A DNA stretch of 64,000 nt from Anianabacter salinae (GTDB lineage Bacteria; Pseudomonadota; Alphaproteobacteria; Rhodobacterales; Rhodobacteraceae): positions 62,001 to 126,000 of the forward strand of contig NZ_JAHQZS010000004.1 of NCBI RefSeq assembly GCF_019061145.1, read 5' to 3'. The first letter of the stretch is position 1. Every line of letters starts with the position of its first letter. The notes under the pieces were generated by a model. It was not told the origin of the DNA. It was given only the letters and a program-made list of their open reading frames with translations, and searched no databases. Of the stretch, positions 1,078-9,049 are shown one piece after another. Made by a program: the position numbers and the translations under genes.

Positions 1078-2232
1078 GTGGCGACCACGTTCAACGTCAT
1101 TTTCCTGGGGAACTTCGCCTCGATCGATCTTGTCGAAGGCGACCGTGCGCCATCGTCAAACAATTCGATTGCCGACAACGCGAACGCACTCATCACGACT
1201 CCTCGGATGGAACTCGGCGGCCCTGGCAATCCGATCTGGAAGTCCATTCAGGAATTCTCGCCCGGATCGACCGGGTCTTCGGGCGGCGTGTCCAATAATT
1301 CCTATGACATGGACAACAACGCCGTGAACGAGACGTTCCGCATCGACGGAGGCACGGAGCAGACCTTTGACGGCACGGCGGTCTACAACGCCACGATCAC
1401 CTACACTGACGGCACGCCGCCTGCGACGATCACGGCGGTCATCTTTCAGGACACGGCGGGAAATACTTATCTCGCGCCCGAGTTCTCGGCGAACGCGGAC
1501 CAGGCGGCGCTTGAGGCCGCGCCGCTGCAATCCATCCGCATAGACAGCGTCGCGGGCACCGAATATTCCGGCATGACCGCAGACCGGCAGACATTCTTCG
1601 GTTTCGTCTGCTTCGTTGAGGGCACCCTGATCCGCACCCCCGGCGGCGAGGTTCCGGTGGAACTGCTGCAGCCGGGCGATCTGGTGATGACGGTCGATCA
1701 CGGCCCGCAGATGGTGCGCTGGATCGGGCACCGGGGAACGCCGTGCTTCGGCCCGCACTTTCCCGTTCGCATTGCGCCCGGCGCGCTGGGAGAGGGGCAA
1801 CCGAAACAGACACTACACGTCTCGCGGCAGCACCGCGTGATGACCCGCTCGCGCCTCGCCGAACGCATGTTCGGCTCGCCCGAGGCTCTGGTGGCGGCGC
1901 ACCGGCTTGTCGGACTGCCCGGCGTGACCGTGGACCGGGACAGAACGCATGTGACCTACTGGCACTTCATGTGCGACAGGCACGAGGTCGTCTTTGCCAA
2001 TGGCGCGCCGTCAGAGACCCTGTTTCTGGGACAGGAAAGCCGCGCAACGATGAGCGGCGACGCCCTGCGCGAAATCTTCGCGCTGTTCCCCGAATTGGAA
2101 CACCGGCCAATGCCCAGCGCCCGCACGATCCCGGTGGGCCGCCGCCAGTCGCGCTATGCAGAGCGTCTGGCGGCGAACCGCAAGCCGGTGCTGGACCGGC
2201 TTTCAATGCCGCAGGTCAGCCGACCACATTGA
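1078..2232 (+). CDS. Hint (hedgehog/intein-like) domain protein
   Basis: A 384-residue protein starting at GTG 1078. Residues 1-170 are Asn/Thr/Gly/Ser-rich and resemble the N-terminal passenger of exported Rhodobacterales Hint_2 proteins. The Hint fold begins near residue 176 with a Cys-Phe pair (C178-F179) followed by EGTLIRTP, and the second block contains SRQHRVM around H252. In this family the Cys would start a self-splicing or self-cleaving N-S acyl shift, but neither cleavage nor a ligation partner can be shown here. There is no classical signal peptide; relatives are often thought to be secreted by type I systems, which is inference. The 3' end overlaps the convergent creatinase by 17 nt. 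The GTG start has a weak Shine-Dalgarno and is the least certain part. Confidence 0.8.
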   Translation: MATTFNVIFLGNFASIDLVEGDRAPSSNNSIADNANALITTPRMELGGPGNPIWKSIQEFSPGSTGSSGGVSNNSYDMDNNAVNETFRIDGGTEQTFDGTAVYNATITYTDGTPPATITAVIFQDTAGNTYLAPEFSANADQAALEAAPLQSIRIDSVAGTEYSGMTADRQTFFGFVCFVEGTLIRTPGGEVPVELLQPGDLVMTVDHGPQMVRWIGHRGTPCFGPHFPVRIAPGALGEGQPKQTLHVSRQHRVMTRSRLAERMFGSPEALVAAHRLVGLPGVTVDRDRTHVTYWHFMCDRHEVVFANGAPSETLFLGQESRATMSGDALREIFALFPELEHRPMPSARTIPVGRRQSRYAERLAANRKPVLDRLSMPQVSRPH

Positions 2233-3427
2233 ACGCCGGACCGTAGGGGTAACCGGTGATGTCCTCTGCCCCGTCCTCGGTCACGATCAGGATGTCGTGC
2301 TCGCGGTAGCCACCGGCGCCGGGCTGGCCTTCGGGGATGGTCAGCATCGGCTCCATCGACACCACCATGCCGGGTTCGAGCACGGTGTCGACATCCTCGC
2401 GCAGCTCCAGCCCCGCCTCGCGCCCGTAGTAGTGGCTGAGGAGGCCGAAGGAATGCCCGTAGCCGAAGCTGCGGTAGTGCAGAAGGTCCCGTTCCGACAG
2501 GAAGTCGTTGATCGCGTGGGTGATGCCGGAACAGGTGGCGCCGGGCCGGATCAGCGACATTCCGTATTCATGGGCGGCGACGTTCGCCTCCCATATCTTC
2601 AGGCTGGCGTCGTCCACCTCGCCGACGAACATCGTCCGTTCCAGCGCGGTATAATAGCCCGAGATCATCGGAAAGGTGTTGAGCGACAGGATATCGCCGC
2701 GCTTCAGCACCCGGGCCGTCACCGGGTTGTGCGCGCCGTCGGTGTTCAACCCCGACTGAAACCAGACCCAGGTGTCGCGGTATTCCGCATCGGGAAACCG
2801 CTCTGCAATCTCGCGTTCCATCGCGTCGCGCCCGGCCATCGCCACGTCGATCTCGCGCAGCCCCTCGCGCACCGTGTCGCGGATCGCATGGCCGCCCACA
2901 TCGGCAACGGCCGCACCCGCACGGATCAGCGCGATCTCGGCGGGCGACTTGCGCATCCGCTGGCGCATGGTCGCCTCGTTGACCGGCTTGGTCTCGGACG
3001 GCTTGAGGAACACGCGCAGCTTCTCGAGGCCGATCATCGTCAGGTGATCCGCCTCGTAGCCGATGCGCGCGGCCTCACCTGTCACGGCCCGGATCGCGCG
3101 CCAATAGTTGTCGCGCTGCCAGTCGGTGTAGGTGATCGCATCGCCGTAAGATCGCCGCCAGGGTTGGCCCGCGTCGATCCCGGCGCTGATCGTCACGCAG
3201 TCGCCCGCCGTTACGACAAGCGCATAGGGCCGCCCGAAAGCGCAGTAGAGAAACCCGCAGTAGTAGGCGATGTTGTGCATCGAGGTCAGGACGACGGCGT
3301 CCAGCCGATGCGTCTCGAGGATGGCGCGCAGCCCGTCAAGGCGCGCCTCGTAATCCTCGGGGGCGAAGGGCAGCGGCGCCTTGTCGCCGTTCCTGAAGCG
3401 GTAGAATTCCTGTCTGGTGTCGGTCAT
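2216..3427 (-). CDS. Creatinase (creatine amidinohydrolase)
   Basis: Hydrolyses creatine to sarcosine and urea. The 403-residue length matches Pseudomonas creatinase (about 402), and similarity runs end to end: a RFRNGDK start, SFGYGHSFG-like and HYYGREAGLELRED blocks, and GGYREHDILIV near the C-terminus. It has the metal-free pita-bread (M24) fold; the catalytic histidine equivalent is H233 in TDGAHNPVT. ATG at 3425-3427 was preferred over an upstream in-frame start because it matches the family start and has GGAG upstream. It is divergent from the SDR/cupin/hydrolase operon across 229 bp. No sarcosine oxidase or creatininase lies beside it, so use as a nitrogen source would need genes elsewhere. 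Related amidinohydrolases acting on other guanidino compounds cannot be excluded. Confidence 0.9.
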   Translation of the reverse strand: MTDTRQEFYRFRNGDKAPLPFAPEDYEARLDGLRAILETHRLDAVVLTSMHNIAYYCGFLYCAFGRPYALVVTAGDCVTISAGIDAGQPWRRSYGDAITYTDWQRDNYWRAIRAVTGEAARIGYEADHLTMIGLEKLRVFLKPSETKPVNEATMRQRMRKSPAEIALIRAGAAVADVGGHAIRDTVREGLREIDVAMAGRDAMEREIAERFPDAEYRDTWVWFQSGLNTDGAHNPVTARVLKRGDILSLNTFPMISGYYTALERTMFVGEVDDASLKIWEANVAAHEYGMSLIRPGATCSGITHAINDFLSERDLLHYRSFGYGHSFGLLSHYYGREAGLELREDVDTVLEPGMVVSMEPMLTIPEGQPGAGGYREHDILIVTEDGAEDITGYPYGPAFNVVG

Positions 3428-3656
3428 GGGATGGCACTCCGGCGCTCGGTCCGGGGCAGGTCGTCTAACCCCGGTCCGCCAAATTCCCGGCGTACAGGAC
3501 GAAAGAGCCTTGGGGTCCGGCGACGCCATCGCCGGGGCTCGGCGCGATGATTGCTACGCGGCGCGCCCCCGCGCAAGGGCCATGCGCGCCCGCGCCCCTT
3601 GCAGTCGCGTGCCCTGCCCGCCACTGTCTGCTGCATGATCTGAGGGAGGGCGAGAC

Positions 3657-4397
3657 ATGCGGCTGGCGGGCAAGACGGCACTGGTGACGGGGGGCGGATC
3701 GGGGTTCGGCGCGGGGATCGCGCGCAAGTTCGCCGCCGAGGGCGCACGCGTGATGATCGCCGACATCAACCTTGCCGCCGCGCAGGCTGTCGCGGGCGCG
3801 CTTGGCGGCGAGGCGGCAGAGGCCGACGTGGCGTCGAACGCCGGCGTTGCGGCGCTGGCCAAGGTCACGCTGTCCGCCTTCGGGCACCTCGACATCCTGG
3901 TGAACAACGCGGGCATCACCCATATGCCGAAACCGATGGAAGACGTGACCGAAGAGGAATTCGACCGCGTGCTGGCCGTCAACGCCAAGTCGGTGTTCCT
4001 GACGGCGCGCCATTTCGTGCCGCAGATGAAGGAACGCGGCAGCGGTGCGATCCTCAACATCGCCTCGACCGCCGGGCTGTCGCCGCGCCCGAACCTCAAC
4101 TGGTACAACGCCTCGAAGGGCTGGATGATCACCGCGACCAAGACGATGGCGGTGGAGCTTGCGCCGCGCGGCGTGCGGGTCAACGCGCTGTGCCCCGTTG
4201 CGGGGGAAACCCCACTGCTGGCGTCCTTCATGGGCGAGGACACGCCCGAACGGCGCAGCGCCTTTCTGTCGACGATCCCTCTCGGCCGCTTCTCGACGCC
4301 CGAGGACATGGGCAACGCGGCCTGCTTCCTGTGCTCGGACGAGGCGTCGATGGTCACCGGCGTGGCAATGGAAGTCGACGGGGGCCGCTGCATATGA
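3657..4397 (+). CDS. SDR family NAD(P)-dependent oxidoreductase
   Basis: A 246-residue classical short-chain dehydrogenase. The Rossmann glycine motif is TGGGSGFG (residues 11-18), NNAG is at 83-86, and the catalytic set N109, S137, Y150 and K154 is intact. D36 at the end of beta-2 suggests NAD rather than NADP. The substrate is unknown; relatives are annotated as glucose, 3-ketoacyl or alcohol dehydrogenases. It is first in a four-gene operon with GAGGGAG upstream of the ATG. Its last codons overlap the next start in an ATGA arrangement at 4394-4397, so translation is probably coupled. The divergent creatinase suggests co-regulation, but no common substrate is evident. Confidence 0.9.
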   Translation: MRLAGKTALVTGGGSGFGAGIARKFAAEGARVMIADINLAAAQAVAGALGGEAAEADVASNAGVAALAKVTLSAFGHLDILVNNAGITHMPKPMEDVTEEEFDRVLAVNAKSVFLTARHFVPQMKERGSGAILNIASTAGLSPRPNLNWYNASKGWMITATKTMAVELAPRGVRVNALCPVAGETPLLASFMGEDTPERRSAFLSTIPLGRFSTPEDMGNAACFLCSDEASMVTGVAMEVDGGRCI

Positions 4398-4753
4398 CGC
4401 TGAAGAAGGTCACGCTGGCGGAGAAGCTGGCGCAGTTCGACAGCCATTGGGACCCGCATGTCGTCGCCGATTACAACGACAACGACGTGATGGTGGTGAA
4501 GTTCGCCGGGCAGTTCCCGTTCCATGTCCACCCCGACACGGACGATTTCTTCTACGTGCTGGAAGGCGAGGTGATCCTGGACGGCGAGGATGGCGACAGC
4601 GTCACCCTGCGCCCCGGCGATCTGTGCGTGGTCCCGAAGGGCATGACCCACCGTCCGCGCGCGGTGTCAGAGGCAAAGGTGCTGCTGATCGAACCAAAGG
4701 GCGTGCCGAACACCGGCGATCCCGCGACCGCGGCGAAGAAACCGCGCCTGTGA
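4394..4753 (+). CDS. Small single-domain cupin
   Basis: 119 residues forming one cupin barrel. The metal-site motif HVHPDTDDFFYVLEG gives H44 and H46 with an acidic residue at 51, and the second motif PGDLCVVPKGMTH supplies H86. Such proteins may be dioxygenases, isomerases or ligand sensors; nothing here decides which. The start overlaps the SDR stop by 4 nt, and its TGA shares a base with the next ATG (TGATG at 4751-4755), so it is translated as part of a coupled set. Confidence 0.85.
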   Translation: MTLKKVTLAEKLAQFDSHWDPHVVADYNDNDVMVVKFAGQFPFHVHPDTDDFFYVLEGEVILDGEDGDSVTLRPGDLCVVPKGMTHRPRAVSEAKVLLIEPKGVPNTGDPATAAKKPRL

Positions 4754-5076
4754 TGGACGGCGTCGCGGTCTTTGCGGGGGGGTTCGCGTCGCAGCCGCTG
4801 GCCTTTGCGCATCTGCTGGATGCCTGCGACGGGGGCGGGCTGGCGCTGGATTTCGACCATGTCGAAGTGATCTGCGGCGGCAACTCCCTGCCCCGTCTGA
4901 CGCATGCTTTCGGCAACGACACCGCCAGGGCCATCCAGTCCGCGCAAGGCGGCGACACGACGCTGATTCTGATCTTCCCCGAAGCGCTGATCCCCGGCGC
5001 GCGCCTGTTCCCGGATACGCCGCACCTGCGCCCTCTCGGTCGCTTCGCCACCCCTTATCCACGGAGGCGCGCATGA
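4753..5076 (+). CDS. Unrecognised 107-residue protein of the creatinase-linked operon
   Basis: I do not recognise this protein. It is neutral to acidic with a hydrophobic start (MDGVAVFAGGFASQPLAF), a central VICGGNSLPRL segment, and a LILIFPEALIPGARLFPD stretch before an Arg-rich tail. There is no signal peptide, no long membrane helix and only two cysteines. Its reality rests on context: it starts inside the cupin stop (TGATG) and ends inside the start of the hydrolase (ATGA at 5073-5076), so it is held at both ends by overlapping coding signals. The alternation of short strands and helices would fit a small alpha/beta domain. A role as a subunit or chaperone of the hydrolase is only a guess. 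Confidence 0.7.
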   Translation: MDGVAVFAGGFASQPLAFAHLLDACDGGGLALDFDHVEVICGGNSLPRLTHAFGNDTARAIQSAQGGDTTLILIFPEALIPGARLFPDTPHLRPLGRFATPYPRRRA

Positions 5077-6065
5077 TCCGGCCCGGTCCGCGCAACCTGA
5101 TTACCGATGTCCCCGGCCTGCGGGTCGGCAATGCCCGCGATGACGGCCTGAAATCCGGGGCCACGGTCTTGCTGGGCGATATGCCCTTCACCGCCGCCGT
5201 GCATGTCATGGGCGGCGCGCCCGGCACGCGCGAGACCGATCTTCTGGCCCCCGAGAACACCGTCGAGCAGGTCGATGCGCTGGTCCTGTCGGGCGGATCG
5301 GCCTTTGGCCTCGACGCGGCATCGGGCGTGGCGGACGCCCTGCGCGCAATCGGGCGCGGGTTCGACGTGGGCGGTCAGCGTGTGCCCATCGTGCCGGGCG
5401 CGATCCTGTTCGACCTGCTGAACGGCGGCGACAAGGGCTGGACGCAGAACCCCTACAAGGCGCTTGGCCGTGCTGCGCTGGATGCCGCTGCTGCGGAGTT
5501 CGAGCTTGGAACAAGCGGCGCGGGCACCGGTGCGACCACGGCGACGCTGAAGGGTGGCCTCGGGTCGGCCTCGGCGGTGCTGCCGTCGGGGCACGTCGTC
5601 GGCGCGCTCGTGGCGGTCAATGCGCTCGGCTCGGCAACGGTGGGTAATACGGCGCATTTCTGGGCCGCCCCGTTCGAGATCGACAGCGAGTTCGGCGGGC
5701 TTGGCCCGGCGACGGCCTTCGCGCCAACGGACATCCCCGCGACCAAGCTTGGCAGCCACCGCAACACCACCATTGCCATCGTCGCTACCGACGCCGTGCT
5801 GTCCAAGGCGCAAGCCAAGCGCTTCGCTGTCGCCGCCCATGACGGCATGGCCCGCGCGCTGATGCCCAGCCACACGCCGATGGACGGCGATCTTGTCTTT
5901 GCCGCCGCGACCGGCACGCGGCCGCTGCAAGACCATGTCGCCGACACGCTGATGATCGGGCACATGGCGTCGATCTGCCTTGCCCGCGCCATCGCGCGCG
6001 GCGTCCATGCCGCCCGCGCAGCGCCCGGTGATCCCGTCCCGATCTGGTCATCGCTCGCCCGGTAA
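5073..6065 (+). CDS. P1-family (DmpA/NylC-like) self-cleaving N-terminal nucleophile hydrolase
   Basis: 330 residues with the fold signatures of the P1/DmpA peptidase family: ITDVPGLRVGN at the start, LSGGSAFGLDAA near residue 72, KGGLGSAS near 160. The strand carrying the nucleophile reads NTTIAIVATDA. By analogy with NylC, cleavage would fall between N231 and T232 and free Thr as catalytic nucleophile. Relatives include D-aminopeptidase DmpA, beta-peptidyl aminopeptidases and nylon-oligomer hydrolase, so an amide substrate is likely but unspecified. It is cytoplasmic, with no signal peptide. It is the last gene of the overlapping operon with SDR, cupin and the 107-residue protein, which suggests hydrolysis of an amide linked to that oxidation pathway. 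Confidence 0.87.
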   Translation: MIRPGPRNLITDVPGLRVGNARDDGLKSGATVLLGDMPFTAAVHVMGGAPGTRETDLLAPENTVEQVDALVLSGGSAFGLDAASGVADALRAIGRGFDVGGQRVPIVPGAILFDLLNGGDKGWTQNPYKALGRAALDAAAAEFELGTSGAGTGATTATLKGGLGSASAVLPSGHVVGALVAVNALGSATVGNTAHFWAAPFEIDSEFGGLGPATAFAPTDIPATKLGSHRNTTIAIVATDAVLSKAQAKRFAVAAHDGMARALMPSHTPMDGDLVFAAATGTRPLQDHVADTLMIGHMASICLARAIARGVHAARAAPGDPVPIWSSLAR

Positions 6066-6126
6066 TCCTTGCGGGAATCGGCGGTCTGTCCCTAACCTTT
6101 CCCATACGGACCTGCAGGAGACGCCA

Positions 6127-6684
6127 ATGACCCGCACCCTTGCCGCCCTCGCCTGCCTTGCGCTGGCCAGCCCCGCCGCCGCCGACGACGTGACCGACAC
6201 GCTCAACTCGGCCATCGAGGCCTACGAGTCGGGCGACATCCAGTTCGCGCTAGAGGAAATCGCCTTTGCACAGCAACTGATGCAGGGGATGAAGACCGAC
6301 ACGCTGTCCGCCCTTCTGCCCGAGGCGCCAGAGGGCTTCACCCGCGAAATCGACACCGAGATGAACGCGGGCCTTGCCATGATGGGCGGCGGCACCGGGA
6401 CCGAGGCGACATATTCCGGCGACGCGGGCAGCTTTACCCTGACTCTTCTTGCCGACAGCCCGATGGTGACGGCGATGGGCGCGATGTTCTCGAACCCGAC
6501 AATCATGGCGGCGAGCGGTGAGTTGTTCCGTGTCGGCCGCCAGCGCTTTGTCGATCAGGACGGAGAGGTGACAACGCTGGTCGCCAACCGCATCCTCGTG
6601 CAGGCCAGCGGCGCGGACCGCGATGTGATGATGCCGGTGCTCGAGGCGATCGACTACGAGGCGCTTGGCAACTTCGGCAACTGA
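6127..6684 (+). CDS. Exported hypothetical protein
   Basis: 185 residues with a signal peptide (MTRTLAALACLALASPAAA, cleavage after about residue 20), so it is periplasmic or secreted. The mature part is acidic and helical at first (VTDTLNSAIEAYESGD), then has a beta-rich region after residue 100 with TLTLLADSPMV. It contains no catalytic motif I recognise. A CAGGAG ribosome binding site precedes the ATG. It stands alone, 61 bp after the hydrolase gene, and ends 4 bp before the convergent alpha/beta hydrolase. Confidence 0.8.
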   Translation: MTRTLAALACLALASPAAADDVTDTLNSAIEAYESGDIQFALEEIAFAQQLMQGMKTDTLSALLPEAPEGFTREIDTEMNAGLAMMGGGTGTEATYSGDAGSFTLTLLADSPMVTAMGAMFSNPTIMAASGELFRVGRQRFVDQDGEVTTLVANRILVQASGADRDVMMPVLEAIDYEALGNFGN

Positions 6685-7570: not shown

Positions 7571-9049
7571 ATGCTCGATTCCAACACCGATCTTGCAGGG
7601 CTTCTGAAGGACCCGTCGCTACTGGTCACGCAAGGGTATCTGGCGGGCGACTGGGCCGATGCCGACGACGGCGCGACCTTCGATGTGACCAATCCCGCGC
7701 GCGGCGACGTTATCGCAAAGGTCGCCGACTATGGCCGCGCTGAAACCGCGCGCGCCATCGACGCCGCCTATGACGCACAGAAGATTTGGGCGGCCAAGAC
7801 CGGCAAGGAGCGTGCGAACATCCTGCGCAAATGGTTCGACCTGATGGTCGAGAACGCGGACGACCTGGGAACGATCCTGACCGCCGAGCAGGGCAAGCCC
7901 CATGCCGAGGCGAAGGGCGAGATCCTCTATGGCGCGTCCTTCATCGAATGGTTCGCGGAAGAGGCCAAGCGCGTCTACGGCGAGACGATCCCCGGCCACG
8001 CGCCCGACAAGCGGATCACCGTCATCAAGCAGCCCATCGGTGTCGCCGCCGCGATCACACCGTGGAATTTTCCCAACGCGATGATCACCCGCAAGGCCGG
8101 GCCAGCCCTTGCCGCGGGGTGTTCGTTCCTTGTGCGCCCCGCGTCGCTGACGCCGCTGTCGGCGCTGGCGCTTGGCGTTCTGGCCGACCGCGCGGGCATC
8201 CCGAAAGGCGTGTTCTCGGTGATCCCGTCAACGCGGTCCTCGGACATCGGCAAGGAATTCTGCGAGAACGTCAAGGTCCGCAAACTGACCTTCACCGGCT
8301 CGACCGAAGTGGGGCGCACGCTGCTGAAACAGGCTGCCGACCAGGTGATGAAATGCTCGATGGAGCTTGGCGGCAACGCGCCCTTCATCGTGTTCGACGA
8401 CGCCGATCTGGATGCTGCCGTCGAGGGCGCGATCGCCTGCAAGTTCCGCAACAACGGCCAGACCTGCGTCTGCGCCAACCGCATCTATGTCCAGTCCGGC
8501 GTCTACGACGCCTTTGCCGAGAAGCTGGCGAAACGGCTGGGCCGCATGACCGTCGGCGACGGGCTTGAGCAGGGCACCGACTTTGGCCCGCTCATCAATC
8601 CGGGCGCCGTCGACAAGGTGCGCGAACATATCGAAGACGCCAGGGCCAAGGGCGGCAGCGTCTACTATGGCGGCGAGGCGCACGCCTTGGGCGGGACGTT
8701 CTTTCAGCCCACCATCATCACCGGCGCGACGCAGGACATGGCCTTTGCCACCGAGGAGACCTTTGGCCCGCTCGCCCCGCTGTTCAAGTTCGAAACCGAG
8801 GACGAGGCGATCCGGCTGGCCAACGACACCATCTTCGGTCTTGCCAGCTATTTCTATGCCCGCGACTACGCCCGTATCATCCGGGTGCAGGAGGCGCTGG
8901 AATATGGCATTGTCGGCGTGAACACTGGCCTCATCTCGACCGAGGTCGCGCCATTTGGCGGGGTCAAGCAATCGGGCCTCGGGCGCGAGGGATCGCACCA
9001 CGGCATCGAGGACTTCACCGAGATGAAATACATCTGCACCAGCCTCTGA
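7571..9049 (+). CDS. gabD: NAD(P)-dependent succinate-semialdehyde dehydrogenase
   Basis: Oxidises succinate semialdehyde to succinate (GABA shunt). The 492-residue protein aligns along its length with E. coli GabD: TPWNFPNA, FTGSTEVGR, the general base E265 in MELGGNAP, the catalytic C299 in GQTCVCANR, and EVAPFGGVKQSGLGREGS. The cofactor-binding position usually written LKPA reads LVRPA here (R189 for the usual Lys), which could change NAD/NADP handling. A GAGGGGAGA ribosome binding site lies just upstream. No gabT is present; the gene is followed by ktrA after 7 bp, so it may share a transcript with the potassium transporter by proximity only. Confidence 0.9.
   Translation: MLDSNTDLAGLLKDPSLLVTQGYLAGDWADADDGATFDVTNPARGDVIAKVADYGRAETARAIDAAYDAQKIWAAKTGKERANILRKWFDLMVENADDLGTILTAEQGKPHAEAKGEILYGASFIEWFAEEAKRVYGETIPGHAPDKRITVIKQPIGVAAAITPWNFPNAMITRKAGPALAAGCSFLVRPASLTPLSALALGVLADRAGIPKGVFSVIPSTRSSDIGKEFCENVKVRKLTFTGSTEVGRTLLKQAADQVMKCSMELGGNAPFIVFDDADLDAAVEGAIACKFRNNGQTCVCANRIYVQSGVYDAFAEKLAKRLGRMTVGDGLEQGTDFGPLINPGAVDKVREHIEDARAKGGSVYYGGEAHALGGTFFQPTIITGATQDMAFATEETFGPLAPLFKFETEDEAIRLANDTIFGLASYFYARDYARIIRVQEALEYGIVGVNTGLISTEVAPFGGVKQSGLGREGSHHGIEDFTEMKYICTSL

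What the first reader, a model, noticed from the sequence alone, without database searches (positions are those of the whole stretch)
2216..6065. Creatinase divergent from a fully overlapping SDR-cupin-unknown-NylC-like operon
Seen: four plus-strand genes joined by ATGA, TGATG and ATGA overlaps, so translation is coupled, opposite a clear creatinase. Known: P1/DmpA-NylC hydrolases cut unusual amides; creatinase acts on a guanidino compound; cupin and SDR are redox or isomerase type. Inference: the set may degrade an N-substituted amide or guanidine compound by hydrolysis and oxidation. I know of no described pathway with this composition.
Basis: partly seen in the sequence, partly recalled or inferred. 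Interest (0 to 1): 0.58.

Follow-up and report, generated by a model that had tools for sequence, protein, structure and literature searches.

The report
SDR–P1 hydrolase operon beside creatinase
The genes are real and belong to a conserved, apparently undescribed operon of Rhodobacteraceae bacteria that seems to take up and cut an amide and oxidise its alcohol part, possibly vitamin B5 (pantothenate); the creatinase next door looks like an ordinary, separate neighbour.

Summary
In detail: a creatinase faces SDR–cupin–107-aa orphan–P1/S58 hydrolase, joined by ATGA, TGATG and ATGA overlaps. The set is a reduced form of a larger operon: M20 deacylase–dipeptide-type ABC transporter–aldehyde dehydrogenase (ALDH)–SDR–P1. 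In 86 of 106 family genomes with both listed, the SDR is directly upstream of P1. Of 104 genomes with the operon ALDH, 98 have the SDR. Cupin and orphan come and go. Creatinase shows no clear co-occurrence with SDR (p 0.21) or ALDH (p 0.07-0.13); I read it as a syntenic neighbour for creatine to sarcosine (sarcosine oxidase found, creatininase not).
Best reading: uptake and hydrolysis of an amide, then alcohol to aldehyde to acid. Leading substrate: pantothenate or pantetheine. P1 resembles ThnT more than NylC; panB/panC lie in the block in several genera; an Ensifer version has an amidase and a leuB; a Vibrio relative of the SDR sits between panB and panE. This is inference, about 0.4. Against: the window genome lacks the operon ALDH, and the SDR family occurs in other settings.

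The parts
2216..3427 (-). creatinase (creatine amidinohydrolase), 403 aa; neighbour, probably not part of the operon's pathway
   Evidence: phmmer 1chm E 1.2e-154, aligned over residues 9-402 with the NTDGAHNPVT stretch kept; found in 135 of 198 family genomes at E<=1e-100
3428..3656 (.). 229-bp divergent intergenic region
   Evidence: no sigma-70-type promoter match in 3380-6200
3657..4397 (+). SDR dehydrogenase (PRK07231 subfamily); oxidation of a primary alcohol is inferred
   Evidence: directly upstream of P1 in 86 of 106 genomes
4394..4753 (+). small Cupin_2 protein, optional operon gene
   Evidence: PF07883 E 1e-16; homologue just before P1 in 6 of 79 named loci
4753..5076 (+). 107-aa orphan family, optional; predicted alpha-beta fold of ferredoxin/ACT-like layout
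   Evidence: no Pfam or NCBIfam match; next to P1 in 11 of 15 genomes with a match and next to the SDR in 1 more; AlphaFold pLDDT 87.7, best VIA Z 6.0
5073..6065 (+). P1/S58 hydrolase, 330 aa, ThnT-like
   Evidence: PF03576 178 bits; ThnT 3tm1 E 2e-60; N231-T232 invariant in 12 sequences; 171 of 198 family genomes
7571..9049 (+). succinate-semialdehyde dehydrogenase (GabD-like), frequent downstream neighbour, membership uncertain
   Evidence: TIGR01780 697 bits over cut-off 646; SSADH among the next labelled genes downstream of P1 in 32 of 79 named loci

Best explanation
The four plus-strand genes are a reduced copy of a Rhodobacteraceae catabolic operon: M20 deacylase, dipeptide-type ABC importer, ALDH, SDR, optional cupin and orphan, P1 hydrolase. 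The importer brings in an amide; P1 (self-cleaved before Thr232) cuts the amide bond; the SDR oxidises a primary alcohol of the released acid to an aldehyde; the ALDH oxidises that to a diacid. My leading substrate is pantothenate or a pantetheine-type compound: P1 would be the unidentified pantothenase or a pantetheine hydrolase, the SDR pantoate 4-dehydrogenase, the ALDH 4-dehydropantoate dehydrogenase giving 3,3-dimethylmalate (pathway recalled). The window genome lacks the operon ALDH, so another ALDH would have to act there, perhaps the SSADH downstream. Creatinase is a separate creatine-to-sarcosine enzyme that lies beside the operon. Shown: the genes, the operon and its conservation, and the absence of a clear creatinase co-occurrence. 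Inferred: every reaction and the substrate.
For: Operon: full layout in L104 and L123 and in Qingshengfaniella; with P1 elsewhere, M20 through SDR in 8 of 20 loci. SDR directly before P1 in 86 of 106. ALDH and SDR: 98 of 104 ALDH genomes have the SDR, Fisher 1e-26. SDR x P1: 115 of 120 vs 56 of 78, p 2e-6. Outside the family a similar ABC transporter is beside P1 in L174, L175 (there with M20) and L186 of 39 loci. P1 is also next to an ALDH in Rhizobium Q54 and to alcohol dehydrogenases in Roseomonas. Substrate: P1 is closest to ThnT among solved structures, and a review says ThnT cuts the pantetheinyl group to cysteamine (PMC6097109, passage). panB and/or panC near P1 in 7 of 61 family loci and 12 of 79 named loci, including M20-panC-panB-SBP-perm-perm-ATPase-P1 in a Yoonia MAG and M20-panC-panB...SDR-cupin-P1 in Roseobacter litoralis. 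Ensifer canadensis: GntR-ALDH-SDR-ABC-amidase-leuB; the queried genes of it are also in L322 and L323; that leuB is 92-93% identical to leuB of S. meliloti and a Rhizobium, which sit in another context. A Vibrio SDR, 57% identical to the window SDR, lies in panB-aminotransferase-SDR-ATP-grasp-panE.
Against: The window genome has no operon ALDH at E<=1e-150. panBC linkage is confined to some genera and could go back to one old insertion. The ALDH-SDR pair also sits with TRAP, LIV-type ABC, tripartite-transporter, CoA-transferase or CoA-ester-lyase genes, so it need not mean pantoate. A dimethylmalate-dehydrogenase-like gene is rare: the Ensifer LeuB query hit 8 of 221 loci, 3 of them the Ensifer/Sinorhizobium ones, 1 Paraburkholderia and L101, L127, L298, L306; by my rough estimate the last four are near chance. 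E. coli cleaves pantothenate (PMC10393543, abstract) yet has no PF03576 match in the control. I did not test whether Ensifer has a second, chromosomal leuB.
Confidence: 0.4

Rival explanations
1. The operon scavenges peptides or other N-acylated amino compounds; P1 and M20 are a general peptidase and deacylase, and SDR and ALDH handle an unrelated or unknown alcohol part.
For: Glutathione/dipeptide-type SBP and ATPase; M20 NF009558 over cut-off; P1 present without the SDR beside it in the loci outside the family and in 56 of 78 family genomes that lack the SDR.
Against: Does not explain the SDR-ALDH coupling to P1 or the panBC and leuB neighbours.
Confidence: 0.33
2. One reading: one pathway for an N-substituted guanidine or amide, with creatinase as a step.
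For: Creatinase lies within 8 kb of P1 in 27 of 108 genomes with both listed, 25 of them divergent upstream, against less than one by my rough estimate from genome size; creatinase and SDR also adjoin, with P1 elsewhere, in G174 and G026; creatinase x ALDH p is 0.07 with all 104 ALDH genomes.
Against: No clear co-occurrence of creatinase with SDR or ALDH; 25 of 31 named creatinase loci show no SDR; sarcosine oxidase gives the creatinase an ordinary role.
Confidence: 0.07
3. The adjacency is only inherited gene order around a near-core P1 gene of housekeeping role; the four genes do not form one pathway in this genome.
For: P1 in 171 of 198 family genomes, one match in nearly all; cupin and orphan sporadic; ALDH absent from the window genome.
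Against: Same-strand SDR-P1 pairing is kept in 86 of 106 genomes, and in the window the genes overlap.
Confidence: 0.16
4. P1 is a nylon-type amidase for synthetic oligomers.
For: Hits to a poly(hexamethylene adipamide) hydrolase E 1e-43, NylC about 1e-17, Nyl12 2e-15.
Against: ThnT scores far higher; the gene is near-universal in the family.
Confidence: 0.03

Closest known systems
ThnT (S58/P1 hydrolase of thienamycin biosynthesis)
   Same: Highest-scoring solved relative, aligned over residues 4-291 with the NTT nucleophile region kept
   Different: ThnT serves antibiotic biosynthesis in another gene setting (PMC6097109, passage); the similarity does not establish the same substrate
NylC / Nyl12 nylon oligomer hydrolases, L-aminopeptidase/D-esterase, beta-peptidyl aminopeptidases
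   Same: Found by the same search, P1/S58 relatives
   Different: Weaker scores: L-aminopeptidase/D-esterase 2e-29, NylC about 1e-17, Nyl12 2e-15, beta-peptidyl aminopeptidase 3e-5
Creatinase (1chm)
   Same: Full-length match E 1e-154
   Different: No creatininase PF02633 found in the window genome
Bacterial pantothenate degradation pathway (pantothenase, pantoate 4-dehydrogenase, 4-dehydropantoate dehydrogenase, dimethylmalate dehydrogenase; recalled)
   Same: Order of reaction types matches P1 or amidase, SDR, ALDH, LeuB-like
   Different: The protein of the first step is unknown (PMC10393543, passage); the last step is not found in the Rhodobacteraceae operon

Membership tests
P1/S58 hydrolases (PF03576) | Pfam model over its cut-off | tested here: met
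   178.5 bits vs 23.9
P1/S58 hydrolases (PF03576) | Asn-Thr self-cleavage site with Thr nucleophile (recalled) | tested here: met
   N231 T232 invariant in 12 sequences, aligned with ThnT NTT; the cleavage itself not tested
NylC nylon hydrolases | NylC is the closest characterised relative by sequence | tested here: not met
   ThnT E 2e-60 vs NylC best 1.6e-17
Creatinase | full-length match to solved creatinases, catalytic His stretch kept (role of the His recalled) | tested here: met
Creatine catabolism to glycine | sarcosine oxidase in the same genome | tested here: met
   two soxA hits over cut-off
Pantothenate degradation pathway | amide hydrolase next to a dehydrogenase | tested here: met
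Pantothenate degradation pathway | operon ALDH present in the window genome | tested here: not met
   no match at E<=1e-150 in G000; present in 104 of 198 family genomes
Pantothenate degradation pathway | beta-decarboxylating dimethylmalate dehydrogenase nearby | tested here: inconclusive
   leuB in the Ensifer operon; 8 of 221 loci hit in all
Pantothenate degradation pathway | enzyme activity on pantothenate and pantoate | not testable with these tools
   needs purified proteins

The most novel reading that the evidence does not exclude
The P1 hydrolase is the long-missing bacterial pantothenase (or a pantetheine hydrolase), and SDR plus ALDH are pantoate and 4-dehydropantoate dehydrogenases: a vitamin B5 catabolic operon spread through Rhodobacteraceae, with an amidase-leuB version in Ensifer.
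Probability: 0.35. Interest if true: 0.7.

Novelty: new variant of a known kind. Interest (0 to 1): 0.45.

Why it matters
A 2023 study reports that bacteria cleave external pantothenate and says the identity of the pantothenase protein is unknown (PMC10393543, abstract and passages). A conserved operon with an amide hydrolase and a matching oxidation pair gives concrete candidate genes for that open question and for vitamin B5 turnover in this family. Even if the substrate is another amide, the operon ALDH is in 104 of 198 family genomes (one per genus), and I found no paper describing such an operon in the searches.

Tried and rejected
Creatinine-lactamase role for P1: considered because creatininase is absent; dropped since P1 and creatinase co-occur only weakly (p 0.07). 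LeuB-like genes near Rhodobacteraceae loci as proof of the last step: dropped, too few. AlphaFold model of P1: poor (pLDDT 56.8), not used. Orphan fold: no Foldseek match with E<=0.001; VIA best Z 6.0, to a subunit of an acetohydroxyacid synthase, a common layout, so no function drawn. Promoter scan empty. M20 relatives in Azospirillum B510 and Ideonella show no ABC-ALDH-SDR-P1 set in their (incomplete) gene tables. Papers seen: PMC6097109 one passage; PMC10393543 abstract, outline and passages; all others listings and abstract starts only.

Limits of the samples. One search printed 150 P1 rows (150 genomes), so searches use those; one search uses the full genome table (171). SDR rows were cut at 60% identity (120 genomes). 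For the ALDH I first typed only the rows down to E 1.2e-185 (99 genomes), leaving out G023, G161, G091, G063 and G059; one search repeats the tests with all 104 and is the one to use; the creatinase p value fell from 0.13 to 0.07. In one search the 64 genomes with ALDH and SDR within 3.5 kb on one strand are of those 99, 80 of which have both on one contig. The 61 family loci were picked from the better-scoring rows, skipping some (mainly on short contigs), plus the creatinase-linked ones, so they over-represent linkage. Of 80 named loci one (L229) gave no map, n=79. Some named loci are the same genomes as numbered ones, so the sets overlap. Fisher tests ignore relatedness. Gene maps come from my own simple ORF calling, which can miss or mis-size small genes. 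Chance estimates for linkage are my own from genome size, not from a call.
Full report
Check. The window holds creatinase 2216-3427 on the minus strand and, divergent from it, SDR 3657-4397, cupin 4394-4753, a 107-aa orphan 4753-5076 and a P1/S58 hydrolase 5073-6065, with the three overlaps described. Family searches confirm the names; the orphan matches nothing in Pfam or NCBIfam (ten family members against Pfam gave only matches of E 0.16 or worse). The creatinase matches solved creatinases over its full length. Among solved structures P1 is closest to ThnT, then a nylon-6,6 hydrolase, an L-aminopeptidase/D-esterase, and NylC.

Census. In 198 genomes of the family, one per genus, P1 occurs in 171, creatinase in 135 at E<=1e-100, the orphan in 15, the SDR in 126 at E<=1e-70 (120 at 60% identity or more) and the operon ALDH in 104 at E<=1e-150.

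Linkage. SDR lies directly upstream of P1 on the same strand, within 1.5 kb, in 86 of 106 genomes with both listed; in 31 of the 86 the gap is at most 40 bp and in 62 at most 150 bp. Of the 104 ALDH genomes 98 have the SDR, against 22 of the other 94 (Fisher 1e-26). Genomes with the SDR have P1 in 115 of 120 cases, those without in 56 of 78. Creatinase is within 8 kb of P1 in 27 of 108 genomes with both listed, 25 of these divergent upstream, far above chance; but across genomes it does not clearly go with the SDR (p 0.21), the ALDH (p 0.07 to 0.13) or P1 (p 0.07). I read this as inherited gene order with at most a weak functional tie.

The larger operon. Maps show M20 deacylase–SBP–permease–permease–ATPase–ALDH–SDR–P1, for example L104 and L123, and as annotated genes in Qingshengfaniella. 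Where P1 lies elsewhere, M20 through SDR still stand together in 8 of 20 loci. In L201 and L202 ABC and ALDH genes precede the window's exact SDR-cupin-orphan-P1 set; in L259 the set has no ABC or ALDH label before it. The window genome has no operon ALDH. So the window set looks like a reduced copy. Outside the family P1 mostly has other neighbours, but the same type of ABC transporter is beside it in L174, L175 (with M20) and L186, 3 of 39 loci; in two plasmid records it adjoins an ALDH or alcohol dehydrogenases.

Substrate. (1) ThnT, the closest solved relative, releases cysteamine from a pantetheinyl group (PMC6097109, passage). (2) panB and/or panC lie in the block in 7 of 61 family loci and 12 of 79 named loci; in a Yoonia MAG panCB is divergent from the SBP gene, in Roseobacter litoralis it lies between M20 and SDR-cupin-P1. 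(3) In Ensifer canadensis related ALDH (61%), SDR (54%) and SBP (49%) genes are followed by an amidase and a leuB. Nine Ensifer records and one S. chiapasense record carry this leuB at 95% or more, and the two of them I checked carry the queried genes of the set. It is 92-93% identical to leuB of S. meliloti and a Rhizobium, which stand beside a PAP2 phosphatase. (4) A Vibrio coralliilyticus SDR, 57% identical to the window SDR and sharing STAxxxPRPxLxWYN with it, lies in a cluster with panB, an aminotransferase, two ATP-grasp enzymes and panE. Together these fit pantothenate to pantoate, 4-dehydropantoate and 3,3-dimethylmalate (pathway recalled). Against: the ALDH-SDR pair occurs with other transporters and CoA enzymes too, so it may serve several hydroxy acids; the ALDH is missing here; the last step is not seen in the Rhodobacteraceae operon; and E. 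coli, which cleaves pantothenate, has no P1.

Creatinase. The window genome has two sarcosine oxidase alpha genes over cut-off and no creatininase match, so creatine to sarcosine to glycine is the plain reading.

Orphan. It is adjacent to P1 in 11 of the 15 genomes with a match, and to the SDR in one more; the other three have no listed P1 or SDR on that contig and two of them are the weakest matches. Its model is confident and has a common ferredoxin/ACT-like layout without a clear match. A regulatory or stabilising partner of P1 or the SDR is a guess.

Verdict. Observation confirmed, pathway idea half right, creatinase link not supported. The open pantothenase question (PMC10393543, passages) makes the candidate worth a simple assay.

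Noticed in passing
window 1078-2232: Hint_2-domain protein (PF13403, 170 bits); its 3' end overlaps the creatinase 3' end by 17 bp, convergent.
   Followed up: no
window 6127-6684: Secreted-looking 185-aa protein of no Pfam or NCBIfam family; relatives lie just downstream of P1 in some other loci (cluster c29).
   Followed up: no
L314, L315, L337: On three Roseobacter-group plasmids the SDR, cupin and P1 genes sit beside dxs and the puf photosynthesis genes.
   Followed up: no
L334 5723-13595: Vibrio coralliilyticus plasmid cluster with panB, aminotransferase, SDR, two ATP-grasp enzymes, panE and an MFS gene: looks like a pantoate-derived natural product.
   Followed up: partly
plasmid records L324, L330, L331, L339, L341: An ALDH-SDR pair of this kind recurs with TRAP, tripartite or LIV-type transporters or CoA enzymes; on Klebsiella plasmids a related ALDH and SDR adjoin near a DUF4387 gene.
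   Followed up: no
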